From: Streptomyces muensis
GTDB taxonomy: Bacteria > Actinomycetota > Actinomycetes > Streptomycetales > Streptomycetaceae
Length of the DNA: 64,000 nucleotides
Direction of reading: 5' to 3'
Assembly: GCF_021474425.1 (NCBI RefSeq)
Contig: NZ_JAKEIP010000002.1
Span: 1-64,000, forward strand
Shown here: positions 5,880-54,057 of the stretch, in pieces
Position numbering within the stretch: the stretch's first letter is position 1
Layout of the letters: each line of letters begins with the position of its first letter
Made by a program: the position numbers and the translations under genes
Notes under the pieces: model-generated
What the model was told of the DNA's origin: nothing
The model's database searches: none
The model's input: only the letters and a program-made list of their open reading frames with translations

Positions 5880-5913
5880 CCGCCCCGACACACCAACCCG
5901 CACGGAGAGCCCC

Positions 5914-12810: not shown

Positions 12811-13109
12811 GGGGCCTCACCTTTGCTGGGGGTGCCGTCTCCCAAGGCGCCCCGATCACGGGGACACAACCAGGCTGGCTGGAACACCGCCCCCACCATG
12901 GCGAGCAGCACGGGGCGCTCCCTCACCTAGAGACGGGATGGAGTGTCACTGCGTGGGCCGAATCCGGGCAGGGTCTGGCCGGGACGCGAGAGGGCCTTGA
13001 GGGATTTCGGCTGGGGGTTCCTCGGAGAGTTCAAGGAGCAGGTGAAACAGCGTGCCAGTCGCTGAGGGAGACGGAGACGTCCGGTCCTTTGCTGAGATAG
13101 CTGTGAAGG

Positions 13110-13348
13110 GCGCTTGACCGGAACTCGACCGGGTCGAGGCCGAGTTTGTGGGCGGCGATGTCCATCATCCGCTCCACGACCCACATGTGCTGGAGCCGGG
13201 AGTAGCCGCGGTTGGGGTGGACGGGGCCCTTGTTGGTGTAGACGGTGCGATAGCGGACCTTCAGGTGCTTGAGCTGGTAGCAGGCGTTGGCGACCTGGGT
13301 CCAGATGGCTCCGCCGAGCGGCTCGTAGCGGGCGTACGCGCCGCCTCG
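13110..13348 (-). pseudogene. Molybdenum-hydroxylase large-subunit fragment
   Basis: About 78 codons resemble the molybdopterin-binding subunit of xanthine/CO-dehydrogenase-type enzymes: a GAYARYEPLGGAIWTQ start, the cofactor-contact segment TNKGPVHPNRGYSRLQ, and ERMMDIAAHKLGLDPVEFR. Full-length relatives run to about 700-800 residues, so this is an internal scrap. The upstream end fuses in the same strand to transposase sequence at about 13345, and the downstream end degenerates after DPVEFR. The gene was probably broken by insertion or deletion involving the adjacent IS. Confidence 0.65.
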
Positions 13349-14279
13349 GTCGTGACGACATGCGTTATCAGGTGCGGGTGGTGTGCGTCGCAGGTCTCGG
13401 TCAGGTGGACCTTGTAGCCGCTCCACTCGGTGGCGTTTTTGATGCAGTAGCGGGCCTCGCCGTCGTAGGGGGATTCGATGCGGTCGCGGGAGGGTGGCAT
13501 GTCCTTCGGCTCCCGCATCCGCACCCGGTCCTCGACGATGACGAACTCCTGGATCCAGCACAGGCGAAGGGCCTCAACGGCCGGAATTTGCGGCAATCAT
13601 GACGGGGCGTGAGGATCGTTGATCGCGGTCAGCAGCCGGATGCGTCCTCGCCGGTCTGCTGCATGTACTGCCTGCGCGGGCCCTCACCACGTGGCAGTCG
13701 GTAGTCTCGATGCGCCGCTGGTAGCGGTCGAACCAGTCGGCCGGCACCGTTCGCCGCAGCCAGTCGCCGGCCGCGGCGGCCAGCGCGTTCAGGGCACTGC
13801 GCAGGTGTTCCGCGGTGTTCTCCACCCGGTTCAGCCGGCGCACCGCGGCCAGGACATGCGTGGAATCGGTGCGCTGACCGCCGGGCCTCACCAGCAGGCC
13901 GGCCTCCTGCAACCGCCGCGGCGCCCGGTCGGCCACCAGACGGTCGCGGAACTCGCTCAGCACGGGAATGGTCGAACCCGGGATCGGTTAACTCCAGCCC
14001 CAGAAGAAACTTCCAGTCGATGCGCCCGCGCACGGCAGCGGTCGCCTGGCGATCCGACAGGCCCTCCACGAACTGCAGCACCGACACGAGCGCCAACTGA
14101 TGTGGCGGCCAGGCGGGTTGACCACGTTGTGGGAACAGCTCCACGAAGTCCTCGTCGGCGAACAGCGGCCCGAGCGCCTCCGGGATCCGCATGCACAGAC
14201 AGCCCTTGGGAAAGGCCAGCCGGGCCATCTCGGCGGTCTGGGTCGGAACCTCGCCCGGCAGACGTGGACGCAGCGACAT
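13345..14279 (-). pseudogene. IS1182-type transposase, multiply frameshifted and truncated
   Basis: The reading starts MSLRPRLPGEVPTQTAEM at ATG 14279 and continues with FPKGCLCMRIPEALGPLFAD, LVSVLQFVEGLSDRQA and GLELTDPGFDHS. It shifts frame near 13965 into LSEFRDRLVADR and RQRTDSTHVLAAVRRLNRVE-like sequence, and shifts again near 13700. A TGA stands where Trp is expected in DPHAPS-W-LPQIPAVEALR, and the remnant ends with YDGEARYCIKNATEWSGYKV and HLTETCDAHHPHLITHV. These blocks are characteristic of IS1182-family DDE transposases. The C-terminal third is missing, replaced by the molybdenum-hydroxylase scrap. It cannot encode an active transposase. Confidence 0.75.
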
Positions 14280-14689
14280 CTCGATCACCTCACGCTCGCG
14301 CCCCCACGCCGATCCGGCCATCATCCCGCCACCGCAAGGTCATTTGGCGACCACCACCGAATTCGCCAACGGTGTCCTGAGAGGGACGTGACCGAAGCCC
14401 GCCCCGAACTGCCTGCCGGCATCGACCCCCTGGGCACCCGAGATCGATACCGGCCGTCGCTGGGTCGGCCCGCCGCACTGCAGGCGGTCAGCGCCGCCGG
14501 CCTACGGGCCATCCACCAAAACCGACCAGAGCTGTCCCGGACCGTGAGGACGCCGCGTCAACGCGCGCAGTTCATCCATTGGTCATCTTGAGTACTCCTG
14601 GAATTACCTCGCAATTCTCAGCTGCTTCTCACATCCCACCGGTTTTGTGTCCTGCGTCGCCCGATCGGGCCGTACGACGAAGGAGGCGC
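14280..14689. promoter_or_regulatory. Gene-free region with candidate regulator site before the VTC gene
   Basis: About 410 bases without a supportable gene. Close to the VTC start there is a direct repeat TTCTCA at 14615-14620 and 14626-14631 (11-base period, typical of OmpR-type regulator sites), overlapping an inverted repeat GAATT-N7-AATTC (14601-14617). Two OmpR-type regulators are encoded in the cluster. The part from 14280 to 14590 shows nothing recognisable. Confidence 0.4.
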
Positions 14690-15595
14690 ATGGTGGCACT
14701 ACCGGTGACCACGTGGCGGAAACCCGAGAGCCGGGAGGAGGAGCAGCGCCCGGCAGAGGAACAGCCGTTGCACGTGGCCAGCAGGCTGCACTCGTTCAAC
14801 CGGTTCGAGCTCAAGTACCTCGTACCGGTCGAGGAGGCGGCCGAGATCCGGGACGAGCTGGCCGAGCGGATGGACCGCGATCTGAACAGCCCGGTCGGCG
14901 GGTACGGCGTGTGGAGCCTGTACTACGACACCCCGCAGCTGCGGTTCTACTGGGAGAAGATCGAGGGCCTGAAGTTCCGGCGAAAGCTGCGCATCCGCCA
15001 CTACGGCAACCTGGACGGGGTCACCGACGAGGCCCCTGTGTGCGTGGAGATCAAGCAGCGCGTCAACCGGGTCACACAGAAGCGCCGCATCACCCTCCCG
15101 TACGGCGTCGCCCGCCAGTTGTGCGACGGCCGGGAGATGGTGGAGCACTCCGCCAAGGAGAGCGCCTTCATCCAGGAGGTGCTCGAACTTGTCGTACGGC
15201 TGAATCTCCAACCCACCGCGATCACCGGCTACCAGCGTGAGGCCCTGGTCGGCCGAGACGCGGACACCGGACTGCGGGTGACCTTCGACCGGCGCATCCG
15301 TGGCCGGGACCGGGACTTCCACTTCGGGACACCGACCCCCGAGCACCGGTTCACCATCCCGCCGCACCTGTCGGTGATGGAGATCAAGGTCAACGAGCGC
15401 ACGCCGTACTGGATCACGGACCTTGCGGCGCGTCGGAACCTCAACCTGATCCGGGTCTCCAAGTACGTGCAGTCCATCGAGGCGTTCGGCCTGGCACCCC
15501 GGTCCGTGTTCCACATCCACGAGGCGGACCACCAGCCGCCGCACACCCCCACGTACTCGGCGCACGAAGCGCCCTTGAAAGCAGGAGCACAGTGA
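14690..15595 (+). CDS. VTC-domain polyphosphate polymerase
   Basis: A 301-residue soluble VTC-domain protein. In yeast the related domain makes polyphosphate from ATP inside a tunnel lined with basic residues. Tunnel-like beta strands with alternating Arg/Lys/Glu are visible: RFELKYLVP, RRKLRIRHYG, VCVEIKQR, ITGYQREAL and MEIKVNERTPYWI. AAGGAGG at 14680-14686 supports ATG 14690, or the adjacent GTG 14693. The stop overlaps the next start (GTGA), so it is translationally coupled to the DUF4956 gene. VTC, DUF4956 and CotH genes are commonly seen together in bacteria, but their joint role is not established to my knowledge. Confidence 0.85.
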   Translation: MVALPVTTWRKPESREEEQRPAEEQPLHVASRLHSFNRFELKYLVPVEEAAEIRDELAERMDRDLNSPVGGYGVWSLYYDTPQLRFYWEKIEGLKFRRKLRIRHYGNLDGVTDEAPVCVEIKQRVNRVTQKRRITLPYGVARQLCDGREMVEHSAKESAFIQEVLELVVRLNLQPTAITGYQREALVGRDADTGLRVTFDRRIRGRDRDFHFGTPTPEHRFTIPPHLSVMEIKVNERTPYWITDLAARRNLNLIRVSKYVQSIEAFGLAPRSVFHIHEADHQPPHTPTYSAHEAPLKAGAQ

Positions 15596-16269
15596 ACTTC
15601 GATCTGCAGGAACTCAGCGGTACGTTCAGCGTTACCGACGTGGTCGTCGCCATGGCGCTGTCGTTCATTCTGAGCACGATGATCGGCCACGTGTACCGGT
15701 ACACGCACCGCAACGTCTCCTACAGCCAGTCCTACGTCCAGACGCTCATCATCGTCGGGATGGTTGTCGCCCTGATCATGCTGGTGGTCGGATCGAACCT
15801 GGCCCGGGCCTTCTCGTTGGTCGGCGCGTTGTCGCTGATCCGGTTCCGGAATGCCATCAAGGAGACCAGGGACGTCGGCTTCGTCTTCTTGGCCATGGCC
15901 ATCGGCATGGCCTGCGGTGCCCGCTTCTACACCCTCGCCGCCGTCGCGGCCGTGGTGATCTCCGTGGTCGTCGTCGTGATGTTCAAGTTCAACTGGTTCG
16001 CCCTGAGCGTCCAGCGCCAGGTCGTCAAGGTCCAGATCCCCGCGGGCGAGGACTACACCTCGGCCATCCGTGACGTCCTCATCCGGTACACCACGGAGTT
16101 CGAGCTGGTGAGCACCGAGACGATCCGCGGCGGCGCGCTGACCGAGGTGTTCTACACGGTGCGCATGAAGAAGGGCACCGAGCCCGGCGACCTGGTGGCC
16201 GCGCTGCAAGAGCGGACATCGGGCCAGCGGGTGACCGTGTTGACCGGTTACGACTCGACCGACCTGTGA
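15592..16269 (+). CDS. DUF4956 membrane protein
   Basis: A 225-residue protein with about four N-terminal TM segments (roughly residues 14-32, 46-66, 75-95 and 100-132) and a cytoplasmic C-terminal domain of about 90 residues with a ferredoxin-like look. The central [20 protein letters not shown] stretch is typical of the family. GTG 15592 overlaps the VTC stop, and its own stop overlaps the CotH start, so the three are tightly coupled. Function is unknown; the position suggests a membrane partner or conduit for the VTC product. Confidence 0.85.
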
Positions 16270-18038
16270 TGGCCGGCGGCAGCGAGGCGGCCCCCACGGC
16301 CGCTGTGCGCAGGCCGCGGCGGATGCGGGACCGGGTACGCGTACGGCTGCGGCACCACTGGAAGCCGGCCGGCGCCCTCTGCGCGGGACTGGTGGTGATG
16401 GTCTATTTCTTCGGCGACGCCCGAGTCTCGCCGTACGTCACCTCCTCCTCCCGCGTGGAGGCGGACGCCATCACGGAGAACGTCGAGGGCACGGTCGACC
16501 TGTACGACACCTCGGTCTCCCACTCCATCCAACTGGAGTACGACCAGACCGACTTCACCAAGATGATGAAGGAGTTCCGCGAGGACGGGACCAAGGACTA
16601 CATCGAGGCCGACCTCACCATCGACGGCGTCTACCTCGAGGACGTCGGAATCCGCCTCAAGGGCAACTCCACACTGGCGTCCCTGCGCGGAAGCGGCCAG
16701 GGCAGGCCCGGTGGCGGCCGGACCATGCCCGAAGGCGCCGAGCAGGGCGCCCCGGAGGCGCAGCAGGACGGCGCAACCGGGGGCCGGGACCGCGGCCAGG
16801 CCAATGGCCGCGGTCCCGGCGGGGCCGGTGGCATCGGGGGCGGGATCACGCAGTACGACCTGTCCGAGAAGAAGCCCGAGGAACTGCCGTGGCTCATCAA
16901 GATCGACGAGTTCATCGAGGGCCGCGCCTATCAGGGCGAGCGTGAGATCTCGCTGCGCCCCGGCAGCAACGGCCAGGTTCCGGTGAACGAGGCCCTCGCG
17001 CTGAGCCTGACGGACACCACCGGTCAGAAGAACGAGCGGTACGCCTTCACTTCGGTACAGGTCAACACCCGCCCGGTCGCCGCCCGGTTGATGGTCGAGA
17101 GCCCGGACACGGAGTACGCGGAGTCCATCGCTGACGGCAACGGCGTGCTCTACAAGGCGCGGGCCGGCGGCAGCTTCGAGTACAAGGGCGACGACCCGAC
17201 CGACTACGAGGAGTCGTTCGAGCAGCTCAACAAGGTGGGCAGTCAGGACCTGGAGCCGGTCATGAAGCTCATCAAGTGGGCGAACGAGGCGTCGGACGAG
17301 GAGTTCGAGAAGGAACTCGACCAGTACCTGGACGTCGAGTCCCTGGCGACGTACCTCGCCGCGCAGAACCTGCTCATGAACTTCGACGACATGGCCGGAC
17401 CCGGCAAGAACTATCTGCTGTGGTACGACCTGGACACCAAGAAGTTCTCGGTCCTGGGATGGGACTACAACCTCACCTTCACCGGCGATGCGACCTCGGG
17501 CCCGGACGACGACACGGGCATGGGCGGTGCCTTCGGTGGTGGCGCTGGAGGTGCCACCGGGCAGAGCAGCCAGGGCGGCCAGGGCACAGGTGGCCAAGCC
17601 GCGCAGAACATGCCCTCCGGGATGCCGTCAGGAATGCCCGAAGGAATGCCCGAAGGAATGCCTTCGGGGATGCCCGAGAATCTGCCGGAAGGCATGCCGT
17701 CCGGAATGCCTTCCGGTCTGCCGGGCGGTCAGAACGGCCAAGGCGGTCAGGGCGGTGAGGGCGAAGGCGGTGGGTTCGCCGGCATGATCGGCCACCCGCT
17801 GAAGGAGCGCTTCCTGGACTCGGACACCTTCGATCCCGTCTACAAGAAGGCGTACAACGAGCTGTACGAGAAGTTCTACGGCTCCGGGACCGCCCTGAAG
17901 GCGCTGAACGCCATCGCCGAACAGGCGGGGAAGGCCGGTGCCGACGGCAAGGAGCTGGACTCCGCCGTCGAGAAGCTGCGCAAGACGGTCACCGAGCGTA
18001 CCGCGGCACTGGCCAAGAACAAGGAAGTGACCGGCTGA
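16266..18038 (+). CDS. cotH: CotH-family kinase with MPSG-repeat insert
   Basis: A 590-residue protein: basic cytoplasmic N-terminus, one TM segment (about residues 37-55), then an extracytoplasmic CotH domain. CotH proteins are atypical secreted protein kinases; Bacillus CotH phosphorylates spore-coat proteins on serines. Visible blocks are [46 protein letters not shown] and the metal-binding-type [10 protein letters not shown]. Two low-complexity inserts interrupt the domain, one Gly/Gln-rich (residues 140-195) and one with MPSG/MPEG repeats (about 448-488). GTG 16266 overlaps the DUF4956 stop; ATG 16269 is equally possible. A strong hairpin follows the stop. Confidence 0.85.
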
Positions 18039-18045
18039 TCACCGG

Positions 18046-18084
18046 CGCCCGGACGGCAGTCCCCCGTGGGGCGCCGTCCGGGCG
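18046..18084 (+). terminator. 12-bp hairpin after the CotH gene
   Basis: CGCCCGGACGGC (18046-18057) and GCCGTCCGGGCG (18073-18084) are perfectly complementary with a 15-base loop, between the CotH stop and the response-regulator start. It should terminate or attenuate transcription, so the downstream two-component genes may have their own promoter. Confidence 0.7.
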
Positions 18085-18124
18085 TTCGGCGCACCGCGAA
18101 CGCCTCACCAGCGAAGGAAGGTCC

Positions 18125-18871
18125 ATGCCCGTCGCGTCGTCGGCGCCCGCGCCACCCCCACACAATGTGCTCGTCGTCGAGGACGACCCCAGCATCCGCA
18201 CCTTGCTCACTTCCGCCCTGCACGCCGCCGGCTACTCCGTGAGCACCGCCGACACAGGCCAGACCGCCATGTTCGAGGCCGGTCGCGGCCAACCCGACCT
18301 GATCGTGCTGGACGTCGGCCTTCCGGACATCGACGGCTTCGCGGTGACCCGTCATCTGCGGGCTGAGGGCGTCTATACGCCGGTGCTGTTCCTGACGGCG
18401 CGTACGGACGTCGAGGACCGCATCATCGGCCTCAGCTCCGGCGGCGACGACTACGTCACCAAGCCGTTCCACGTGCAGGAGGTGCTGCTGCGCATCCGTG
18501 CCATCCTGCGGCGCAGTGACATGCCACCGGGCGGAGGGACCAGGAGGCCGCCGCTGCGGTACGCGGATCTGGTGCTGGACCAGCAGACCCACGAGGTGCG
18601 CCGGGCCGGGCTGCCCATCCAGCTGTCGCCCACCGAGTTCCGGCTCCTGGTCTGCCTGCTTGCGCAGCCGGAACGCGTGGTGGGCAAGAAGGAGATCCTG
18701 TCCGAGGTCTGGCACTACGACTTCGCCGGTGACGCCCGCATCGTCGACACCTACGTACGCAACCTGCGGCGCAAGATAGACCGGTTCGAGCCCCAGCTCA
18801 TCCAGACGGTCCGCGGTGTCGGCTACTGCCTGCGGGCCGCGCGCCCCGGACCGGGGGCGGCGGCGCTGTGA
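18125..18871 (+). CDS. OmpR-family response regulator (first pair)
   Basis: A 248-residue response regulator. The receiver domain has acidic pocket E19-D20-D21, phospho-acceptor D63 (LIVLDVGLPD), switch T91 (FLTAR) and K113 (VTKPF). The C-terminal winged helix ends in the usual VDTYVRNLRRKID and IQTVRGVGYCLR blocks. An AAGGAAGG site precedes ATG 18125. Its stop overlaps the GTG of the kinase gene. It is about 60 percent similar by eye to the regulator at 25077-25820. Confidence 0.92.
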   Translation: MPVASSAPAPPPHNVLVVEDDPSIRTLLTSALHAAGYSVSTADTGQTAMFEAGRGQPDLIVLDVGLPDIDGFAVTRHLRAEGVYTPVLFLTARTDVEDRIIGLSSGGDDYVTKPFHVQEVLLRIRAILRRSDMPPGGGTRRPPLRYADLVLDQQTHEVRRAGLPIQLSPTEFRLLVCLLAQPERVVGKKEILSEVWHYDFAGDARIVDTYVRNLRRKIDRFEPQLIQTVRGVGYCLRAARPGPGAAAL

Positions 18872-20439
18872 GGCGGTGGGTGCGCCGGCTGAAACCGCGC
18901 TCGCTGCGAGCCCGTCTGGTGCTCGGCGTCACGCTGCTGGCCACCTCGGCGGTTCTGCTCTGTCAGGCGGCAGGGCTCGCCCTGCTCCACTCCTGGCTGA
19001 CGGACCAGGTCGACGGGCGACTGACCCGTTTCCAGCCAGTGCCCCAGCTTTACAAGGACGTGGCCGACGGCCGGACTGCGTCAGGGGCGCCCGGCAGGAC
19101 GGGCGGCCTCCCTTCGGACTACCGGGTGTACTTCTACGACAGAGGTGGCCACCGGATTGCCATGTCGCTGAGCGGCGACGGGGGCGGTGCCGGGCCGCGA
19201 CTCCCGAAGTCGGAGGCGGAACTCGGCCTCAAGAACGGCCGCCCCTCCACGGTCGCCGCGACCGACGGCGGCAGCACCTGGCGGGTGATCGCCCGGTCCG
19301 GCACCGACGGCACCCGGGTCGTGGTGGCGCTGCCTCTGGAGGAGGTGGACGAGGCGACCTCCCGGATGCTGTGGTTCAGCGTCGCTGTCGGAGTGGCCGT
19401 CGCAACGGGGGTCGTCCTCTTCGGCACCCTCGCTGTGCGGCTGGGACTGCGGCCGCTGGTCGGAGTCGAGCGCACTGCCAGGCGCATCGCCGAAGGTGAG
19501 TTGGAACTGAGCGTTCCGGACCGGCATGCGGTCACCGAGGTCGGCCACCTCAGCCGTGCCCTGAACACGATGCTCGACCGGCTGCGCACCGCGCTGCGTC
19601 GCACCGAGGCGTCGGAGCAACGGCTGCGCCACTTCCTGGCGGACGCCGGCCATGAACTGCGAACTCCCCTCACGTCTTTGCAGGGCTTCGCCGAACTCCT
19701 GGTGCAGGAGCCGGAGATGAGCCTGGAACGACGCCAGGAGGCGCAGCAGCTGATCGTGCGGAACGCCGACCGGATGAGCCGTCTCATCGAGAGCCTGTCC
19801 CAACTGGCCAGGCTCGGTGAGGTACCCGCGACGCGGTGGCAACCGGTCGACCTCCTCTCTCTAGCGGCCGACGGTATCGCTGCCGTCGCCGTGCGACACC
19901 CCGGGCGCAGCATCGGCCTCGGCACTCTCGCCGACCCCGAGGACGACGCCCGCGTGGACGAGCTGGACGTCGTCGACGCCGTCGGCGACCCGCATCAGCT
20001 GGCGCAGATCCTGTCGAATCTGCTCACCAACGCGTGCGTCCACACTCCGACCGGGACACACATCCAGGTGCGCGTCGGCACCCTCCGAGTCCGCCCACAC
20101 GGGCCGGGCACGACTGGACCGGGCCGTACCAGCGCCAACGCGCCGCTCATACCCGGCACTCGGGTCTGTGCCGTCGAGGTCGCCGATGACGGGGCCGGCC
20201 TTGCCGAGTCGCACGCGCGGCGGGTGTTCGAGCGGTTCTACCGCGCCGATTCGGCCGAGCGGGCCGCGGCAGCGGGGTCCGGCCTGGGGCTTGCGATCGC
20301 CGCCGGCGCCGCGGAGGCCAACGGCGGCCGTCTGGAACTCGAGGCCAGGCCAGGCGAAGGCTGCACATTCCGCCTGCTCCTGCCGTATCAGCCCGCCGCT
20401 GCAGCCACGGCTGCCCCGGCTCCCCACACCTGCGTATAG
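18868..20439 (+). CDS. Sensor histidine kinase (first pair)
   Basis: A 523-residue membrane kinase. TM1 (about 16-40) and TM2 (about 168-190) frame a 125-residue extracytoplasmic sensor containing YRVYFYDRGGHRI. HAMP follows (191-244), then the H-box FLADAGHELRTPLTSLQGF with H262, and the N, G1 (VADDGAGLAE), F and G2 (GSGLGLAI) boxes of the ATPase domain. The GTG start overlaps the regulator stop. It has the same domain plan and sensor style as the kinase at 25817-27355, indicating duplication. Confidence 0.92.
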   Translation: MRRWVRRLKPRSLRARLVLGVTLLATSAVLLCQAAGLALLHSWLTDQVDGRLTRFQPVPQLYKDVADGRTASGAPGRTGGLPSDYRVYFYDRGGHRIAMSLSGDGGGAGPRLPKSEAELGLKNGRPSTVAATDGGSTWRVIARSGTDGTRVVVALPLEEVDEATSRMLWFSVAVGVAVATGVVLFGTLAVRLGLRPLVGVERTARRIAEGELELSVPDRHAVTEVGHLSRALNTMLDRLRTALRRTEASEQRLRHFLADAGHELRTPLTSLQGFAELLVQEPEMSLERRQEAQQLIVRNADRMSRLIESLSQLARLGEVPATRWQPVDLLSLAADGIAAVAVRHPGRSIGLGTLADPEDDARVDELDVVDAVGDPHQLAQILSNLLTNACVHTPTGTHIQVRVGTLRVRPHGPGTTGPGRTSANAPLIPGTRVCAVEVADDGAGLAESHARRVFERFYRADSAERAAAAGSGLGLAIAAGAAEANGGRLELEARPGEGCTFRLLLPYQPAAAATAAPAPHTCV

Positions 20440-20470
20440 GGCCGCATCTCTACCAAAAGGAGTGCCACCG

Positions 20471-21307
20471 GTGAAGCTCAGCACCGTACGACTGGGACAA
20501 GGCCGTACAGCCGCCGCACGTCTGCAGAAGAAGCACTGCGTGGTGCTGCCCTACCCGGACGTCGGGGCGCTGATCGCCTCCGGCGCCGACTGGCGGGAAC
20601 GGGCCGCTGCTGAAACCGATGAACGCCACAGGATGGACGACATCTCCTACGCGCCCCTCATCACCCGGCCGAGCAAGATCGTTCGTGTTGGACCCAACTA
20701 CGCGGCACGGGTACGAGAGACGGGCACCTCCTTCCCCACCGTTCCGGTGTTCTCCGTGGGGCAAGGCGGCCAAGGCGTTGCCGGTGCCCGCGACGCCATC
20801 TGCCTGCCGGCCGAGGGACGGAACGTGGACTGGGGCGTGGAGTTGGGCCTGGTGATCGGGTGCCGGACCCGTGGGGTCCCGGCCCGGACGGCGCTGCGCC
20901 ATGTCGCGGGCTACACCGTCGTCAATGGCGTCACCGCGCGGAGCGACTCGGGAAGCGCCCCCGCGTCGGGACTGTCCACTGACGTCACCCTGGTGGGCCC
21001 CGCCATGGTCACCACCGACGACGTGCCGATGGGCGGCCGCGGTCTGACGATGAGCTGTGTCATCGACGGACGGGTCCGCCAGAGGGCGAACACCTCGCAG
21101 CTGATCTTCGACGTCGCCACCGTCATCGCCCATGTCAGCACCGTGACCACGCTGCTGCCCGGAGACCTGATCACGACGGGCAGACCGGCCGGATCAGGCA
21201 CCGGACGCGAACCCGAGGTCCTTCTGTACCCCGGTGTGGACATGGTCACCGAGATCAAGGGTGTCGGGGAACTCAGGAACTCCGTGGTGCGGTCGGGTCC
21301 GCAGTGA
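20471..21307 (+). CDS. FAH-family protein with degenerate active site
   Basis: A 278-residue FAH-superfamily protein, paralogous to the edge gene at 1-324 (shared MxLSTVR start, LPYxDVGALxAxGxDW and NYA blocks). Several hallmark residues are changed: the usual NYATH His is R80, the DWExEL first Glu is G122, and the NDVSARD acids are G153 and S158. The closing LIFDVATVIAHVSTV and LLPGDLITTGRPAG blocks are kept. Catalysis is therefore doubtful. GTG 20471 follows AAGGAG. It sits between the first kinase and the glycosyltransferases, an odd place for a catabolic enzyme; it could be a non-enzymatic binding protein or a decaying import. Confidence 0.75.
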   Translation: MKLSTVRLGQGRTAAARLQKKHCVVLPYPDVGALIASGADWRERAAAETDERHRMDDISYAPLITRPSKIVRVGPNYAARVRETGTSFPTVPVFSVGQGGQGVAGARDAICLPAEGRNVDWGVELGLVIGCRTRGVPARTALRHVAGYTVVNGVTARSDSGSAPASGLSTDVTLVGPAMVTTDDVPMGGRGLTMSCVIDGRVRQRANTSQLIFDVATVIAHVSTVTTLLPGDLITTGRPAGSGTGREPEVLLYPGVDMVTEIKGVGELRNSVVRSGPQ

Positions 21308-21459
21308 ACCGTGGGAGAGCTTTCGGCCATAGATCTGACTCCCTGTCAGTTCCCAGCGTTCTTTCCCCGCCTCCACAGGCAGGGCGGCAACAGTGAGGCC
21401 GCGGCCCGGACCAGGGCCTCAGAGCCGCAGTCTGCCGTCCCCTCACGCCTGAGGAAGCC

Positions 21460-22749
21460 ATGACTCCCACCCCCCACCTCACCGAGACCACCGCCCGCCC
21501 GGAGCGCTTGGCGCCGTTCCAGCAGGTCGAGCGGTCCCTTCATCCACAGGCCGGTACCGCGACGGTCGACATCGTCGTGCCGGTCTACAACGAGGAACGC
21601 GCCCTGCCCGGCTGCCTGCGCACACTCCACGCCCGACTGGCGGCGGACTTCCCCTTTCCGTGGCGGATCACGGTCGCCGACAACGCCAGCACCGACGAGA
21701 CCCTCGCCACCGCCCGTCGCCTCGCCGACGAACTGCCGGGCGTCGGCGTGGTCCACCTCGACCGCAAGGGCCGCGGGCTCGCCCTGCGCACCGTCTGGGG
21801 CGCCAGCGACGCGGACATCGTCGCGTACATGGATGTGGACCTGTCCACCGGCCTCGACGGGCTGCTTCCGCTGGTCGCGCCCCTGGCCAGCGGTCACTCG
21901 GACCTCGCCATCGGTTCCCGGCTGGCACCTGGGTCGCGCACGGTGCGCGGCCCGCGCCGCGAGTTCATCTCCCGCTGCTACAACGGCATCATCCGGCTCA
22001 CGCACGGCGTCCGGTTCACCGACGCCCAGTGCGGATTCAAGGCGGCCCGCACCGAGGTGCTGAAGCCGCTGCTGCAGGTGACCCGCGACGACGCGTGGTT
22101 CTTCGACACCGAGCTGCTGCTGCTCGCCGAGCACAACGGACTGCGTGTCCACGAGGTCCCCGTCGACTGGGTCGAGGACGTCGACACCCGGGTGGACGTG
22201 GTGAACACCGCCACCGACGACCTGCGGGGCCTGTGGCGGATGGCGCGGTTCAAGGCATCCGGCGGCGCCCGGGTCGACGTACCGTCTCGCCCCGCACCGG
22301 CCGCCGAGCACCCCGACGCGGTCCTCGCACCCGCTGCCCGACGTGGCGCGTTGTCCTGGGAGGTCGGCTGTTTCCTGGCGATCGGTGTCGTCTCCACGGT
22401 CGGGCAGGCGCTGCTGTACTGGCTGCTGCGCGGTTGGTGGAGCCCGGCTGTCGCCAACCTGGTCTCGCTGTTCGTCCTCACCGTCCTCAACACGGAGGCG
22501 AACCGACGCCTCACCTTCCGGTACTCCACCGCTCCGCCCGTGCGGACGCACCTGGGCGCCGGGGGCCTGTTCGTCCTGGGGTACCTGGTCACCTCCGGCG
22601 CGGTGCTGTGGTTCAAGTCGATCGCCCCCGGGGCCTCGACAGCCGCGGAGACCGCGATCCTCGCCACGGCATCCGTCGCGGTCACCTGCGTGCGCTTCGC
22701 CGTGCTGCGGCTGGCCGTCTTCACCAGCGCCCCCCGCCGTACCCGTTGA
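21460..22749 (+). CDS. Polyprenyl-phosphate glycosyltransferase fused to GtrA domain
   Basis: A 429-residue fusion. Residues about 36-265 are a GT2 domain of the dolichol-phosphate mannose synthase type (VDIVVPVYNEERALPGCL, MDVDLSTGLDGL as the DXD region, DAQCGFKAAR). Residues about 300-425 are a four-TM GtrA domain, which in other systems helps flip polyprenyl-linked sugars. The combined product would make and translocate a lipid-linked monosaccharide for the GT39 enzyme 17 bases downstream. The 150-base gap before it may contain a promoter. Confidence 0.88.
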   Translation: MTPTPHLTETTARPERLAPFQQVERSLHPQAGTATVDIVVPVYNEERALPGCLRTLHARLAADFPFPWRITVADNASTDETLATARRLADELPGVGVVHLDRKGRGLALRTVWGASDADIVAYMDVDLSTGLDGLLPLVAPLASGHSDLAIGSRLAPGSRTVRGPRREFISRCYNGIIRLTHGVRFTDAQCGFKAARTEVLKPLLQVTRDDAWFFDTELLLLAEHNGLRVHEVPVDWVEDVDTRVDVVNTATDDLRGLWRMARFKASGGARVDVPSRPAPAAEHPDAVLAPAARRGALSWEVGCFLAIGVVSTVGQALLYWLLRGWWSPAVANLVSLFVLTVLNTEANRRLTFRYSTAPPVRTHLGAGGLFVLGYLVTSGAVLWFKSIAPGASTAAETAILATASVAVTCVRFAVLRLAVFTSAPRRTR

Positions 22750-22766
22750 CGAGAGCGACTTCCGAC

Positions 22767-25025
22767 ATGAGCAATCCCACGCACCTCAAGCCTGTACCGG
22801 CCGCCTCGACCCCCGACGATTCGCCTGCGTCCGTCCGCTCGCTGCCCGCCTGGGCGGCTCCGGCCGCACTCGGAGCGATCCTCGTGCTCGCGGCCGTCCT
22901 GTACGGCTGGGCACTGGGCTCTCTGGGATGGGCCAACAGCTACTACTCCGCGGCCGTGAAGTCGATGGGGAAGAGCTGGACCAACTTCCTCTTCGGCTCC
23001 TTCGACCCGGCCGGGGTGATCACGGTCGACAAGCCGCCGGCCGCGCTGTGGCCGCAGGTGATCAGCAGCAAGATCTTCGGGCTGCACGGCTGGGCGCTGG
23101 TCCTGCCGCAGACGGTCGAGGGCGTGGCCGCGGTCCTCGTCCTGCACCGCACCGTGCGGCGCTGGGCTGGGGAGGGGGCGGCGCTGGTCGCCGCGCTGGT
23201 GCTCACTCTCACGCCCATCACCGTGGCCATCAACCGGGACAACAATCCCGACACGCTGCTCGTCCTGCTGCTGGTGTCCGCGGCGTACGCGCTCACCCGC
23301 GCGTTGCAGGCCGAGGGCAGGGCAGCGACCTGGTGGCTGTGTGCGAGCGGCTTCCTGATCGGGTGCGGATTCCTCACCAAAATGCTCGCCGCCTGGATGG
23401 TCATTCCCGCGTTCACCCTCGCCTGGCTCGTGGGAGGAAGCGGCCCCTGGATACCGCGAGTGCGGCGTCTGCTGGGCGCGGGGGCCATCCTGGCGGCGTC
23501 CTCCTTGTGGTGGGTCGCCATGGTCGCCCTGTGGCCGGGCGACCGCCCCTACATCGGCGGCAGCAAGGACGGTTCGGCCTGGGATCTCGTGGTCGGCTAC
23601 AACGGGCTGGGCCGGGTCTTCGGCTCGAGCGACGGAATGTCCCAGAACATGGGCGGGTTCGGCGGCGGGTTCGGTGGCGCGGCCAGCCTGGGCCGGTTGT
23701 TCAACGCGCAGGTGGGCGGCCAGATCAGCTGGCTGCTGCCGGTCAGCGCACTGGCCTTGGCCGTCGCCCTGGTCGGCGTGGTGATGCGCCGACGCGGCAT
23801 GCTGTCCGCCGACGCCCTGCTGCCGGCCTCCGGCTGGCTGCTGTGGGGGACCTGGCTGGTGGTCTGCGCGGCCGTGTACTCGACACAGAAGGGCATCTTC
23901 CACCCCTACTACACCACTCAGCTCGCTCCGGCGATAGCCGCCCTGTGTGGCGGACTGACCGCCGCCCTGGTCCGTGTCCACCGTGCCGGCGTGCGCTGGG
24001 CGCCCCTGGTGGGCGTGGCCGCGGTCGTGGTCAGCGCGGTCTGGGCCGTGGCACTGGTCCGCCGTGACTCCGACTGGAACGGCTGGCTGGTGTGGCCGGT
24101 CCTGCTGCTCGGCTGCGCCGCGGTCGTCCTGCTGCTCCTCGCGCGCCGGCGTGGTCGGCTGCTGACGGTCGCCGTGGGTGCCGCCGTCGCGTCGGTCCTG
24201 GTGGCCCCGGGAGCGTGGGCGGTCAGCGTACCGGGCTCGACATCCGCGATGGGCGGCTCCAACCCGACGGCCGGTCCGACGACGTTCGGCTTCGGCGGGG
24301 GCGGCCGCATGCCCCGGCAGAGCGGGAACGACGGTGACCTTCCGTCGTCGGGGATGCCGTCGGGCTTCCCGGGTGGTGACACCCCTTCGGGACAGCCCGG
24401 TCAGCCCTCCTCCGGCGATGCTCCTTCGGGAATGCCGTCAGGCATGCCGTCCGGTATGCCCACAGGGGGAGCGAACGGCATGCCGGGCATGCCCGGCATG
24501 CCCGGAGGCTCGACCTCGGGAGACAGCGACATGCCGTCATTTCCCGGCGGCGGTTCCGGGAAGGCCCCGAGCGGACGCGGCGGCTTCGGCGGTGGCGCGG
24601 AACTCACCAGCGAGCAGCGCAAGATTCTCGACTACGCCGTGGAGCACGCACCTCACGCCCGCATCAAGCTCGCCGTCGAAGGCGGTGCCATGGCCACCAG
24701 CTCCTTCATCCTGGGCTCGGACGAGACTGTCATCGGCATGGGCGGTTTCACCAGCGGCGACAACGCGCCGTCGGTGGACCAGTTGGAGGAGTGGACGAAG
24801 AGCGGGGAACTACGCTACGTCCTGGGCTCCGACACGAACAGCGGCGGCAGGCCGGGCATGACCGGGTCCCGCAACTACAGCAAGGAGCGTTCCGACTGGA
24901 TCGCTGACAACTGCACCAAGGTTCCGGCTTCGGCGTACGGCGGCACGTCGTCGAACAAGAGCAGCGGTAGCGCGATGGGCTTCGGAGCAGGAGCCGACGT
25001 GCTCTACGACTGCGCCGCCAAGTAG
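22767..25025 (+). CDS. GT39/PMT-like membrane glycosyltransferase with MPSG-repeat tail
   Basis: A 752-residue protein. The first part (about 1-480) has 10-12 TM segments with the PMT/ArnT-type first-loop region (YYSAAVKSMGKSWTNFLFG, VDKPPAALWPQ), expected to transfer a sugar from a polyprenyl phosphate to an extracytoplasmic acceptor. A Pro/Gly/Ser/Met-rich segment (about 505-610) contains repeated MPSG and MPGM units. A C-terminal extracytoplasmic domain follows (LTSEQRKILDYAVEHAPHARIKL onward). The same repeat type occurs in the CotH protein of this cluster. ATG 22767 is taken because the PMT region starts just after it; the far longer upstream frame shadows the GT2 gene. Confidence 0.85.
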   Translation: MSNPTHLKPVPAASTPDDSPASVRSLPAWAAPAALGAILVLAAVLYGWALGSLGWANSYYSAAVKSMGKSWTNFLFGSFDPAGVITVDKPPAALWPQVISSKIFGLHGWALVLPQTVEGVAAVLVLHRTVRRWAGEGAALVAALVLTLTPITVAINRDNNPDTLLVLLLVSAAYALTRALQAEGRAATWWLCASGFLIGCGFLTKMLAAWMVIPAFTLAWLVGGSGPWIPRVRRLLGAGAILAASSLWWVAMVALWPGDRPYIGGSKDGSAWDLVVGYNGLGRVFGSSDGMSQNMGGFGGGFGGAASLGRLFNAQVGGQISWLLPVSALALAVALVGVVMRRRGMLSADALLPASGWLLWGTWLVVCAAVYSTQKGIFHPYYTTQLAPAIAALCGGLTAALVRVHRAGVRWAPLVGVAAVVVSAVWAVALVRRDSDWNGWLVWPVLLLGCAAVVLLLLARRRGRLLTVAVGAAVASVLVAPGAWAVSVPGSTSAMGGSNPTAGPTTFGFGGGGRMPRQSGNDGDLPSSGMPSGFPGGDTPSGQPGQPSSGDAPSGMPSGMPSGMPTGGANGMPGMPGMPGGSTSGDSDMPSFPGGGSGKAPSGRGGFGGGAELTSEQRKILDYAVEHAPHARIKLAVEGGAMATSSFILGSDETVIGMGGFTSGDNAPSVDQLEEWTKSGELRYVLGSDTNSGGRPGMTGSRNYSKERSDWIADNCTKVPASAYGGTSSNKSSGSAMGFGAGADVLYDCAAK

Positions 25026-25076
25026 GCGACGCCGGAGCAACGGGGACCACCGGGGAGAACGGACCAGCATCACGTC

Positions 25077-25820
25077 ATGACCGAGCAGTCCGCAACGGCT
25101 CGTCCGCGACATCGGCTTCTCGTGGTCGAGGACGAGCCCAGCATCCGCACCCTGCTGGAGGCGACGCTCCGCCTGACCGGATACGAGGTGAGCAGCACCG
25201 ACACCGGACAGTCCGCCCTTGTCGAGGTCGAACGCCTGCGACCGCACCTGGTGCTGCTCGACGTGATGCTGCCCGACCTGGACGGCTTCGAGGTGACCCG
25301 CAGGCTGCGGGCGGCAGGTGACGACTGTCCGATCCTGTTCCTGACCGCCCGCACCGGCACCGACGAACGTATCCAGGGCCTGAGCGCCGGCGGGGACGAC
25401 TACGTCTCGAAACCGTTCAGCATCGAGGAGGTGTTGCTGCGTATCGAGGCCATCCTGCGCCGCACGGCACCGGTGGACGCGGCACTCCCACCACCGAGCG
25501 TCCTGCGCTACGCCGACCTCGAACTCGACGAGGGCGCTCACGAAGTGCACCGCGCGGGACAGTACATCGCCCTGTCCCCGACCGAGTTCAAGCTCCTGGC
25601 CTACCTCCTGTCCAACGCCGGCCAGGTGGTGAGCAAGGTCCAGATCCTCGACCACGTCTGGAGCTACGACTTCGCCGGTGACGCCAGGATCATCGAGACG
25701 TACGTCCGCTACCTGCGCAGGAAGATCGACTGCTTCGAGCCGCCGCTCATCCAGACCGTGCGCGGCGTCGGCTACTGCCTGCGGCTGCCCCGCGACCACG
25801 AGGGGACGCCGGAGCAGTGA
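25077..25820 (+). CDS. OmpR-family response regulator (second pair)
   Basis: A 247-residue response regulator with phospho-acceptor D62 (LLDVMLPDLDG), K112 (VSKPF) and a C-terminal winged helix (YVRYLRRKID, IQTVRGVGYCLR). It closely resembles the regulator at 18125-18871, including LLVVEDEPSIRTLLEA against VLVVEDDPSIRTLLTS. It lies 51 bases after the GT39 gene and overlaps the kinase start by GTGA. Confidence 0.92.
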   Translation: MTEQSATARPRHRLLVVEDEPSIRTLLEATLRLTGYEVSSTDTGQSALVEVERLRPHLVLLDVMLPDLDGFEVTRRLRAAGDDCPILFLTARTGTDERIQGLSAGGDDYVSKPFSIEEVLLRIEAILRRTAPVDAALPPPSVLRYADLELDEGAHEVHRAGQYIALSPTEFKLLAYLLSNAGQVVSKVQILDHVWSYDFAGDARIIETYVRYLRRKIDCFEPPLIQTVRGVGYCLRLPRDHEGTPEQ

Positions 25821-27355
25821 TCCCCCGCCTGCCCAGGCCACCCGGCTCACTGCGACAACGACTGATCCTCGGCGTCACCGTCCTCGCCACGGCGGCGGTT
25901 CTGACCTCCCAGGCCATCGGCTACGTGGTGCTCCGCTCCTGGTTGCTCGATCGCGTCGACCAGCAGCTGGTGGAGTTCCACCCTCCGACCCCGGCCTTCT
26001 ACGACGCCCTCCGTGGCGCTTTCCCCGCGTCGGACGAGCGTCTGGACGTACTGCCGTCGGATTTCCACGTCTATTTCTACGACTCTTCCGGGCATCGCCT
26101 GAACAACTCCCTCGGCACGGAGGCAAAGCCGGGGCCTCGGCTGACCGATCAGGCGCAGGACCTCGACCTGAGGGACGGGCACCCGGAAACCGTGTCCGCC
26201 ATCAGCGGTGACGGCCGCTGGCGGGTGTTGCTCAATCCGGGCCCGGACGGCATGAGCGCGGTGGTTGCCCTGCCGCTCGACACCGTCGACGGCGCCACCT
26301 CGAAGCTGTTGTGGCTGAACGCCGTGCTGCTCGCTGTCACGATCGCCGGCCTGCTCGCCCTGGGCCGGTGGGTGGTCAGGCTGGGGCTGCTGCCACTGAC
26401 CAGGACGGAGCGAACTGCCCAGGACATCACCGCGGGCCGGCTCGACCTGCGGCTGCCGGACACCGACCCGCGCACCGAGATCGGACGGCTCGGCCGGGTG
26501 TTGAACTCCATGCTCGACAAACTGCAGACCGCCCTGCTGGCCCGCGAGGCCTCCGAGGCACGGCTGCGCCGGTTTGTCGCGGACGCCGGGCACGAACTGC
26601 GCACTCCGCTCACCGCCATCCAGGGCTACGCCCAGCTCGCGCTGCGTCCGGAGCGGCGCCCGGAGCGTGAGCTGCGGGAGGCCAACCGGTTCATCGCGCA
26701 GAACGCGGAGCGCATGAGCCTACTCGTCGACGACCTCCAACTGCTCGCCACCCTGGATCGCGAACCCTCCTACCGCAAAGAACGGGTCGACCTGCTCTCG
26801 CTCGCGGCGGACGCGGTGAGCGCGGCCGCCGTCCACAGTCAGTCCCATCCCGTCGACCTGGGCCCGCTGCCCACTCCGGCAGATCCGGGCGGCATCGAGG
26901 AACTCGACGTGGCCGAGACCGTCGGCGACCCGCGCCGACTGGGGCAGATCCTGGAGAACCTGCTGTCCAACGCCCGCATCCACACCCCGCCGGGCACCCG
27001 GGTCCACGTACGGGTGGGCACGACAGAGACCGGACCCGGAACGGGCGGCACCGACCGGCCGGGACGCACCTCCGCCTCGCCGCCGCTCCCGGAGCGCCTC
27101 CCAGTCAGCGTGATCGAGGTGGCGGACGAAGGACCGGGCCTCGCCCCCGTCGACGCCGAGCACGTCTTCGAGCGCTTCTACCGGGCCGACCCCGCCCGTT
27201 CCCGCAGCCACGGCGGGAGCGGCCTCGGCCTCGCCATCGCCTCGGCCATCGCCCAGGGCCACGGCGGCCGTCTCGAACTCGACACCGTCCCCGGCGAGGG
27301 CTGCACCTTCCGCCTGGTCCTCCCCGCAGCCGACTTCGGGCAGGGCCGTCGATGA
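25817..27355 (+). CDS. Sensor histidine kinase (second pair)
   Basis: A 512-residue kinase with TM1 (about 15-39), an extracytoplasmic sensor with FHVYFYDSSGHRLNNSLG, TM2 (about 164-186), HAMP, H-box RFVADAGHELRTPLTAIQGY (H259) and an intact ATPase domain (SNARIHTPPGT, VADEGPGLAP, GGSGLGLAIA). The layout is the same as the kinase at 18868-20439 and the sensors align along most of their length, so the pairs are duplicates that may respond to related envelope signals. GTG start overlaps the regulator stop. Confidence 0.92.
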   Translation: MIPRLPRPPGSLRQRLILGVTVLATAAVLTSQAIGYVVLRSWLLDRVDQQLVEFHPPTPAFYDALRGAFPASDERLDVLPSDFHVYFYDSSGHRLNNSLGTEAKPGPRLTDQAQDLDLRDGHPETVSAISGDGRWRVLLNPGPDGMSAVVALPLDTVDGATSKLLWLNAVLLAVTIAGLLALGRWVVRLGLLPLTRTERTAQDITAGRLDLRLPDTDPRTEIGRLGRVLNSMLDKLQTALLAREASEARLRRFVADAGHELRTPLTAIQGYAQLALRPERRPERELREANRFIAQNAERMSLLVDDLQLLATLDREPSYRKERVDLLSLAADAVSAAAVHSQSHPVDLGPLPTPADPGGIEELDVAETVGDPRRLGQILENLLSNARIHTPPGTRVHVRVGTTETGPGTGGTDRPGRTSASPPLPERLPVSVIEVADEGPGLAPVDAEHVFERFYRADPARSRSHGGSGLGLAIASAIAQGHGGRLELDTVPGEGCTFRLVLPAADFGQGRR

Positions 27356-51631: not shown

Positions 51632-52624
51632 CTAACCGTGCAGCTCGCGGTAGGCGGCGACCGCCCCGGAGTGCAGAGGCACCACCCCCGTGGAGATCAG
51701 GCTGCGGGCGTCGAGGAACTGTGTGCCGAGAGCCGTGGTGGGGACGAGGCGGCCGGCCCGGCGTACCAGCACGTGGGTGAGCGCGGCGGCGACCGGTGCG
51801 GGCAGGTCGGGGCGGCACAGGAGCAGATTGGCGACACCGATGGTGGCCACCTCGGGCGTGCCCCGGTACGCCGCGGCCGGCACCGTCACCGCCTCCAGCC
51901 CCGATCCCGAGCGTTCCGTACCGGCACGCAGCCGGGGCAGCAGGCCGGCCAGCGGCAGCAGCCGGATGCCGGGCCGGACGTCGAGGCCGGACAGCACCGG
52001 CAGCGGTACGCCGCCCGCGACCAGCAGGGCGTCGACGGAGCCGTCCGCCACCGCCCGCGCTGCCTGGGGCATCAGCAGATGCCGGACGCGGACATCGGTG
52101 CCCGGCGTCAGACCTGCCGCCCGCAGCAGACGGTCGCCGAGCACGGCACCGCCGGACGCGGGCGCCCCCAGCGACACGGTGCGCCCCGCCAGGTCGGAGA
52201 CGGCACGGATCGGCGCGTCGGCGCGGACGGCCAGCTGGACGTAGTTCTCGTAGACCCGGCCGATCGCACGCAACGGGACCCGTCGGCCGAACGGCGCGGA
52301 ACCGGCGTACGCCGCCCACGCGATGTCGGCCAGGGCCAGCGCCACGTCGGCCCGACGCTCCTCGACCAGCCGTACGTTGGCCACGCTGCCCTCGCTGCGC
52401 AGCACCTCGCAGGACAGCCGGGGGTAGACCTGCGTCACCTGGTCGGCGAGGAGTTGACCGAAGGCCGCGTAGAAGCCGTCGGACTCGCCGGTCGCGATCC
52501 GCAGCGTCCCCTCGGGGCCACGGTCCGTGTGCCGGGCGTCGGCCGTCCCGGCTCCGGCGAGCAGGGTGGCGCACGCCGTGCCGAGGGCGGCGCGCAGCGC
52601 GGTGCGGCGGGCGGGGCCGGTCAC
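51632..52624 (-). CDS. TAXI-type periplasmic solute-binding protein without TRAP permease
   Basis: A 330-residue secreted binding protein. The N-terminus has a Tat-like RRTALRAALG and an AxA-type end (GTADARH), with no lipobox Cys. The TAXI signature LRIATGESDGFYAAFGQLLA is followed by SEGSVANVRLVEERRADVAL, GRTVSLGAPASGGAVLGD and VRHLLMPQAARAVADGSVDA. No TRAP membrane subunits are present. GTG 52624 overlaps the kinase stop (GTGA), so it probably acts as the extracytoplasmic ligand sensor for that kinase. Confidence 0.85.
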   Translation of the reverse strand: MTGPARRTALRAALGTACATLLAGAGTADARHTDRGPEGTLRIATGESDGFYAAFGQLLADQVTQVYPRLSCEVLRSEGSVANVRLVEERRADVALALADIAWAAYAGSAPFGRRVPLRAIGRVYENYVQLAVRADAPIRAVSDLAGRTVSLGAPASGGAVLGDRLLRAAGLTPGTDVRVRHLLMPQAARAVADGSVDALLVAGGVPLPVLSGLDVRPGIRLLPLAGLLPRLRAGTERSGSGLEAVTVPAAAYRGTPEVATIGVANLLLCRPDLPAPVAAALTHVLVRRAGRLVPTTALGTQFLDARSLISTGVVPLHSGAVAAYRELHG

Positions 52625-54039: not shown

Positions 54040-54057
54040 GCGAGGGCCCCGGCCTGC

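What the first reader, a model, noticed from the sequence alone, without database searches (positions are those of the whole stretch)
14690..27355. Candidate envelope system: VTC polymerase, DUF4956, CotH kinase, lipid-sugar pathway and two two-component pairs
The sequence shows three overlapping genes (VTC, DUF4956, CotH) followed on the same strand by a response regulator/kinase pair, an FAH-like protein, GT2-GtrA, GT39 and a second regulator/kinase pair. VTC domains make polyphosphate, CotH proteins are secreted kinases, and GT2-GtrA plus GT39 make and use polyprenyl-linked sugars. Together they suggest a pathway that builds a phosphorylated and glycosylated surface product, with two sensors reading its state. 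I know of no described pathway with this full set.
Basis: partly seen in the sequence, partly recalled or inferred. Interest (0 to 1): 0.8.

Follow-up and report, generated by a model that had tools for sequence, protein, structure and literature searches.

The report
Sensor-run polyphosphate and surface-kinase operon
Some Streptomyces carry a compact, probably sensor-controlled gene set that pairs a yeast-like polyphosphate-making enzyme and a membrane protein with a secreted kinase, and in a few species also with a surface-sugar module; it looks like an inducible way to phosphorylate the cell envelope, and it is found without the Pel biofilm sugar genes to which it had been linked.

Summary
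VTC, DUF4956 and CotH overlap by 4 bases, followed by RR1-HK1, FAH, GT2-GtrA, YkcB-type GT39 and RR2-HK2. In the 80 best named loci with this VTC subtype, DUF4956 is present in 80, CotH in 79, a two-component pair nearby in 53, GT39 in 16 and the whole set in 12, with gene order permuted in two. The two TCS are paralogues; their clade also sits beside GT39 or MacB-type transporters where VTC is absent.

New evidence: a conserved direct repeat of 11-bp period (TTCTCA-N5-TYCTCA) upstream of VTC, rare elsewhere, tracks the linked TCS (50 of 51 loci with it, 3 of 8 without). The only strong match not upstream of a VTC lies upstream of a TCS-linked GT39 in a VTC-less genome. CotH and VTC-linked GT39s share Met-Pro-Gly-rich tracts seen in none of 1,512 other neighbouring proteins. 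The triad is known from Pel clusters; here it occurs without PelG. Polyphosphate export and the surface substrate are inferred, not shown.

The parts
14615..14631 (+). TTCTCA-N5-TTCTCA direct repeat (11-bp period), candidate response-regulator box of the VTC operon
   Evidence: exact match; conserved upstream of VTC; tracks the linked TCS
14690..15595 (+). VTC-type triphosphate-tunnel polyphosphate polymerase, 301 aa, no SPX or membrane domain found
   Evidence: Pfam 3.4e-45; invariant residues; profile hits yeast Vtc4 3g3q at 5.4e-14; residue mapping
15592..16269 (+). DUF4956 membrane protein, helices then an ACT/ferredoxin-like C-terminal domain, many invariant Arg/Lys
   Evidence: Pfam 2.7e-23, sub-threshold MgtC 2.7e-05; alignment; low-confidence model
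16266..18038 (+). CotH-type kinase with N-terminal anchor helix 32-49, kinase domain outside (inferred topology)
   Evidence: Pfam 2.6e-30; 5jd9 by sequence; model matches 5jda at 1.8e-12
17517..17786 (+). low-confidence (disordered) Met-Pro-Gly-rich tract of CotH (residues 418-507), MP[S/E]G repeats, after the WDYN motif
18125..18871 (+). RR1, OmpR/PhoB-type response regulator
18868..20439 (+). HK1, HAMP sensor kinase of the triad-linked clade
20471..21307 (+). fumarylacetoacetate-hydrolase-fold enzyme, accessory
   Evidence: 18 of 80 loci
21333..21356 (+). conserved block upstream of GT2-GtrA (ATCTGACTCYCYGTCAGTTCYCAG), possible degenerate box
   Evidence: alignment of 14 loci; no PWM score above 10 here
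21460..22749 (+). GT2 with C-terminal GtrA membrane domain, likely polyprenyl-phosphate sugar synthase and flippase part (function inferred from family)
22767..25025 (+). YkcB-type GT39 (GT-C) glycosyltransferase with extracytoplasmic C-terminal domain
24432..24505 (+). core of the Met-Pro-Gly-rich tract of GT39, MP[S/T]G repeats
25077..25820 (+). RR2, second response regulator
25817..27355 (+). HK2, paralogue of HK1 (52% identity)

Best explanation
This is an inducible envelope-phosphorylation operon of Streptomyces. Shown by comparison: VTC-DUF4956-CotH is a fixed unit; in Streptomycetaceae it is usually followed by its own two-component pair; the unit's promoter carries a conserved 11-bp-period repeat that tracks that pair; in a sublineage a second module (GT2-GtrA, GT39 and a paralogous pair) is joined to it. 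Inferred: the sensor kinase detects an envelope stress, its regulator binds the repeat and turns on the unit. VTC makes polyphosphate from ATP at the inner membrane face, DUF4956 is its membrane partner and passes or anchors the chain, and CotH, anchored outside, puts phosphate on surface substrates. The linked GT39, fed by GT2-GtrA, adds a sugar to a surface acceptor in the same place; the Met-Pro-Gly tracts shared by CotH and GT39 bring the two enzymes together or are modified by them. My separate estimates: modular co-regulated unit 0.8; VTC catalytically competent 0.8; DUF4956-coupled polyphosphate export 0.35; CotH acting on the shared tracts 0.2.
For: DUF4956 80 of 80, CotH 79 of 80, TCS 53 of 80 beside type-1 VTC; 51 of 59 Streptomycetaceae loci with at least 5 kb downstream have the RR nearby. 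HKs of triad-, GT39- and MacB-linked pairs of Streptomycetaceae form one clade of 60 of 81 rows, 100/100. Box: 39 of 43 regex matches and 66 of 69 PWM matches above 18 in 2.64 Mb lie upstream of a full VTC; 20 of 27 held-out Streptomycetaceae VTC promoters positive, 200 column-permuted matrices at most 1 of 81; box in 50 of 51 loci with linked TCS and 3 of 8 without, p = 6e-5, not corrected for kinship. Of the three other PWM matches two overlap upstream of a fragmentary VTC (L020) and one is 100 bp upstream of GT39 in the VTC-less GT39-RR-HK locus L069. The positions of R264, R266 and E426 of yeast Vtc4, whose joint substitution impairs it (PMC9911596, passages), are invariant in 37 aligned VTCs. 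CotH motif and fold kept. Met tracts: CotH 43 of 87, GT39 9 of 12, other proteins 0 of 1,512, gained at least twice in linked GT39s. CotH of B. subtilis phosphorylates serine-rich repeats (PMC7821199, abstract and passages).
Against: No product, substrate, stimulus or binding was measured. DUF4956 as a channel rests on adjacency and invariant basic residues; its model is poor (mean pLDDT 63.6) and the fold search listed only weak matches, the best to soluble ferredoxin-like folds. In S. intermedius the passages I read report no change on deleting the VTC gene, more Pel on deleting the DUF4956 gene and less on deleting the CotH gene (PMC12345266), so the three are not simply one linear pathway there. 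GT39 is beside the triad in only 16 of 80 loci and the triad occurs in genomes without YkcB_C. The box scores above 18 in 0 of 15 non-Streptomycetaceae loci, although one of 13 such loci has a nearby RR; no GT2-GtrA promoter scored above 10 in the loci scanned, nor did the other VTC-less GT39 locus, L068. With one mismatch allowed the box is not specific. MPxG positions in the S. pyxinicus GT39 are often Asn, not Ser/Thr, against a simple phospho-site reading.
Confidence: 0.5

Rival explanations
1. Regulator of an exopolysaccharide. As in the streptococcal pel loci, the three proteins tune or modify a surface glycan made by enzymes elsewhere in the genome; polyphosphate is an intracellular signal or phosphate source and is not exported.
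For: Triad genes are contiguous with Gram-positive pel clusters (PMC7112168) and two of the three change Pel levels (PMC12345266). Of 41 fetched actinobacterial loci of the second VTC subtype, 13 hold a Cthe_2159 carbohydrate-binding protein and 3 a CotH-domain protein, one of which, in L039, also carries a CBM2 cellulose-binding domain.
Against: In the 17 type-1 genomes first found, and 49 VTC genomes in all, PelG gave only partial matches far from VTC. Apart from CotH, DUF4956, TCS and an ABC-transporter cluster I noted no family recurring beside type-1 triads, but not every recurrent cluster was annotated, and GT39 is there in a minority.
Confidence: 0.3
2. Two neighbouring but separate operons. 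A triad with its TCS and a glycosylation module with a paralogous TCS became neighbours in one Streptomyces lineage; sensor duplication makes them look coupled.
For: Both modules occur alone. The GT2-GtrA promoter has its own conserved block. The 12 loci with the full set are all Streptomyces.
Against: Order is permuted yet linkage kept (L094, L109); other arrangements in L096, L097, L110, and a YkcB-like C-terminus just upstream of the triad in another family (L030). The Met-Pro tract arose independently in the L096 GT39. The only strong box match not upstream of a VTC is at a GT39 promoter.
Confidence: 0.3
3. Cytoplasmic phosphate store. VTC makes storage polyphosphate during stress; DUF4956 acts like MgtC on ATP or phosphate homeostasis; CotH acts separately in the envelope.
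For: DUF4956 has a weak, sub-threshold MgtC match; the response regulators' best NCBIfam models include PhoB, though below cut-off.
Against: Near-constant pairing with CotH, 79 of 80.
Confidence: 0.2

Closest known systems
CotH / polyphosphate polymerase / DUF4956 accessory genes of Gram-positive pel clusters (PMC7112168; SIR_1592-1594, PMC12345266; passages read)
   Same: Same three families in one cluster; CotH-type protein; DUF4956 with membrane helices and ACT-like C-terminus
   Different: No full-length PelG in the 17 type-1 genomes tested (other pel genes not searched); own two-component pair; promoter box; in a sublineage a GT2-GtrA/GT39 module
Eukaryotic VTC complex (Vtc1/3/4)
   Same: Catalytic tunnel-domain residues conserved; polymerase next to a separate membrane protein
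   Different: No SPX or fused membrane domain found; partner is DUF4956, not Vtc1
Bacillus CotH spore-coat kinase
   Same: Kinase fold and active-site motifs
   Different: Predicted N-terminal anchor helix and a disordered MPxG insert after the WDYN motif; whether CotB/CotG-like substrates exist was not searched
B. subtilis YkcB-YkcC and other multi-component GT2/GtrA/GT-C glycosylation systems (papers seen in a search listing only; function recalled)
   Same: GT2-GtrA plus YkcB_C-type GT39
   Different: Next to TCS and the triad; Met-Pro-Gly tract; acceptor unknown

Membership tests
VTC polyphosphate polymerase (TTM superfamily) | Catalytic tunnel residues matching Vtc4 R264, R266, E426 and neighbouring basic residues | tested here: met
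   R101, R103, E231 and others invariant in 37 sequences; aligned to 3g3q/5iiq
VTC polyphosphate polymerase (TTM superfamily) | Polyphosphate synthesis from ATP | not testable with these tools
   needs purified protein
Eukaryotic VTC complex | SPX domain and fused membrane domain | tested here: not met
   Pfam finds only the VTC domain in 338 aa
CotH kinase | CotH fold with NFD and WDY-type motifs | tested here: met
CotH kinase | Ser kinase activity | not testable with these tools
   needs purified protein
pel accessory triad | CotH, VTC-type polymerase and DUF4956 contiguous | tested here: met
   17 of 17 type-1 loci; 79 of 80 named loci
pel accessory triad | contiguous with pelDEADAFG | tested here: not met
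   PelG only: 7 of 49 VTC genomes (5 over the family cut-off) give partial matches, profile about 321-446 of 452, on other contigs or about 1 Mb away; genomes of the 80 named loci were not searched for it
YkcB-type GT39 | PMT_2 plus YkcB_C domains | tested here: met
MtrAB, CseBC, PhoBR equivalogs | NCBIfam cut-off score | tested here: not met
   the best 25 models listed for each protein are all below their cut-offs

The most novel reading that the evidence does not exclude
VTC plus DUF4956 is a bacterial polyphosphate synthase-translocase, working like the yeast vacuolar complex but delivering polyphosphate to the cell surface. There the co-encoded CotH uses it, or ATP, to phosphorylate surface acceptors, with Met-Pro-Gly tracts as the docking site shared with a co-regulated glycosyltransferase.
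Probability: 0.22. Interest if true: 0.85.

Novelty: new variant of a known kind. Interest (0 to 1): 0.6.

Why it matters
It shows the VTC-DUF4956-CotH triad without PelG, although a 2025 paper reported not finding the three genes together outside the Pel locus, and gives a candidate promoter box, a sensor clade and two enzymes that share a peculiar tract. That makes the function of bacterial VTC proteins and of non-spore CotH kinases testable in Streptomyces. If polyphosphate is exported it would be a new route for putting phosphate on a bacterial surface.

Tried and rejected
Pel-linked explanation: set aside for these genomes because PelG gave only partial, distant matches in 7 of 49 VTC genomes, 5 of them over the family cut-off. 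The 49 include all 17 type-1 genomes; other VTC genomes, the 80 named loci's genomes and the other pel genes were not searched.

VTC-CotH fusion: long ORFs in L037, L039, L060 and L061 looked like fusions, but Pfam (L039, L060, L061) and the profile maps show separate VTC and CotH or Cthe_2159 genes; my simple gene caller had used a wrong frame.

Phospho-site reading of MP[S/T]G repeats: favoured for GT39 (59 of 68 x positions are S or T) but weakened by the S. pyxinicus GT39, where they are often Asn, and by CotH repeats (E 118, G 83, S 70 of 308).

A second box upstream of the ABC-GT39 pair in S. pyxinicus (score 14.2) overlaps a hairpin with a T-run; not counted.

Box in whole genomes (8 searched): exact matches are 1 in G083 and 1 in G162, both upstream of VTC, 3 in G000 (one upstream of VTC, two on small contigs not examined) and none in G180, G060, G113, G179 and G028. 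With one mismatch G000 has 24 against 12 for the reversed control, so it does not define a regulon. The two-mismatch count in the window is not above chance (2 against 0.73). The 4 regex matches away from full VTCs were not inspected one by one.

Thresholds (PWM above 18; 5 Met in 40 with at least 14 G+P; HMM scores; neighbour distances) were set after looking at the data. The 80 loci are the best-scoring of 414 relatives, mostly Streptomyces, so counts are not independent. Rows dropped: before I left out short loci and unnamed copies of named loci; L004, which is not a copy, was left out too; a few overlapping stretches stayed in (L033/L155, L074/L096, L076/L116). 20 further type-2 VTC genomes were not fetched. 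The unlinked GT39s were picked by me from the listed YkcB_C matches, not at random.

Fold search for DUF4956 gave no match at E 0.001 or below; the best concern its ferredoxin-like tail.
Full report
Observation. The ten genes are present at the stated place, all on the + strand, with 4-base overlaps VTC/DUF4956 and DUF4956/CotH and the start at 14690 preceded by AAGGAGG. The genome (9.9 Mb, 669 contigs) is taken as Streptomyces because its closest named VTC loci, up to 98% identical, are Streptomyces.

Distribution. VTC is uncommon: 17 of 200 family genomes and 60 of 394 class genomes (the two sets overlap). YkcB_C proteins are common: 183 of 200. VTC matches fall into two subtypes by score and neighbourhood. 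All 17 type-1 loci read VTC-DUF4956-CotH; 11 have an RR/HK pair directly beside the triad and a twelfth (L029) some kb away. In the 41 type-2 loci that I fetched (20 further genomes were not) DUF4956 adjoins VTC in 40; Cthe_2159 is present in 13 and CotH in 3; both RR and HK are near in 15 (my count from the printed maps; Pfam confirms Cthe_2159 in the 8 tested and CotH in the 1 tested).

Larger sample. A scan of named genomes gave 414 relatives, of which the best 80 were kept. DUF4956 80 of 80, CotH 79 of 80, TCS 53 of 80, FAH 18, GT2-GtrA 14, GT39 16 (one partial, L095), the whole set 12. Several TCS-negative loci end at a contig edge; with at least 5 kb downstream the RR is nearby in 51 of 59 Streptomycetaceae and 1 of 13 others. 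In L094 and L109 the GT2-GtrA-GT39-RR-HK block precedes VTC; in L096 GT39 alone does; in L030, another family, a YkcB-like C-terminus (40 bits, cut by the contig edge) ends upstream of VTC.

Sensors. HK1 is the only other protein of the genome matching HK2 at E 1e-100 or below (52% identity). Such HK2 matches occur in 9 of 200 genomes: in G000, G083, G162, G180 and G032 one is next to the triad; in G028 and G179 it is next to GT39 without VTC; in G060 and G113 next to a MacB/FtsX-type ABC transporter. The kinase tree puts 60 Streptomycetaceae rows in one clade (100/100): 51 beside the triad, 6 downstream of GT39, 1 after FAH, 2 beside MacB-type genes. Its nearest neighbours in the tree are five triad-linked kinases of another family, one of them Nonomuraea (97/90); several joins involve long branches and are uncertain.

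Promoter box. Upstream of VTC lies TTCTCAGCTGCTTCTCA. The family T[TC]CTCA-N5-T[TC]CTCA occurs 39 times upstream of VTC and 4 times elsewhere in 145 loci (2,638,544 bases); a matrix made from it gives 66 against 3 above 18. Of the 3, two are overlapping matches upstream of a fragmentary VTC (L020) and one is 100 bp upstream of GT39 in L069; the other VTC-less GT39 locus, L068, has none above 10. Held-out test: 20 of 27 Streptomycetaceae, 0 of 15 others; 200 column-permuted matrices mean 0.005, largest 1 of 81. Linked TCS and box go together: 50 of 51 with TCS, 3 of 8 without (kinship not corrected). In whole genomes the exact box is rare, but with one mismatch it is not specific. The 11-bp period fits OmpR/PhoB-type regulators (recalled knowledge). 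The GT2-GtrA promoter carries another block conserved in 14 loci.

Enzymes. VTC active-site residues are invariant and its profile reaches Vtc4 structures. CotH keeps the kinase motif; its model matches 5jda. DUF4956 is highly conserved, with Arg/Lys such as R36, R72, R84, R86, K90, R93, R111 invariant in 26 sequences, which would suit a polyanion path like the positive belt described for yeast VTC (PMC9911596, passages); this is inference.

Shared tract. With at least 5 Met in a G/P-rich 40-residue window: CotH 43 of 87, GT39 9 of 12, others 0 of 1,512, and none of the VTC, DUF4956, RR, HK, GT2-GtrA, FAH or Cthe_2159 proteins. Of 9 VTC-linked GT39 loci examined, 8 reach 6-7 Met (the ninth, L110, is cut by the locus end); 22 distinct unlinked or TCS-only paralogues, one of them partial, reach at most 4. 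The S. pyxinicus GT39 sits inside an unlinked clade (98/100), so on this tree the tract arose at least twice. Its meaning is open: docking, modification site, or metal/oxidant binding.

Literature. Searched terms: VTC domain/CotH/DUF4956, polyphosphate polymerase domain/CotH/VTC/bacteria, YkcB/YkcC, VTC/polyphosphate/DUF4956, CotH/polyphosphate/bacterial, VTC/CotH kinase/two-component/Streptomyces, CotH/CotG phosphorylation, Cthe_2159 combinations. Found: the pel-linked triad (PMC7112168, PMC12345266, passages) and a C. perfringens locus with VTC and CotH genes (PMC2879425, passages). [quoted passage not shown] the loci here are such cases, as far as PelG tells. In these searches I saw no paper describing the Streptomyces set; listings were not all read.

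Verdict. A real, modular, probably co-regulated system; a new variant of a known gene triad; mechanism inferred.

Noticed in passing
window 13034-14324 (-): Apparently decayed region upstream of the VTC promoter: fragments matching a molybdopterin-binding domain and a DUF772 transposase domain.
   Followed up: partly
window 17610-17675 and 24432-24460: CotH and GT39 tracts share a nearly identical 12-bp DNA unit (ATGCCSTCAGGM) with a TCA serine codon.
   Followed up: partly
L040, L046, L047, L051, L054, L055, L057, L059-L062, L064: Loci of the second VTC subtype hold Cthe_2159 carbohydrate-binding proteins instead of CotH.
   Followed up: partly
L037, L039: CotH-domain proteins downstream of VTC; the L039 one carries chitobiase C-terminal and CBM2 cellulose-binding domains by Pfam, and the L037 one has a similar long tail by eye.
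   Followed up: partly
L070, L071: The same sensor clade sits next to a MacB/FtsX-type ABC transporter in genomes without a VTC match.
   Followed up: partly
L020:15645-16282 (-): Fragmentary type-1 VTC match that still has the box upstream.
   Followed up: no
G000:C151:206-222 and C218:332-348: Two further exact boxes on other contigs of the same genome.
   Followed up: no
window 52621-54741 (-): A third, separate response regulator/kinase pair next to an MFS transporter.
   Followed up: no
window 41730-43760 and 5479-7434: DUF1996 protein and an RPE65-type carotenoid oxygenase, apparently unrelated to the finding.
   Followed up: no
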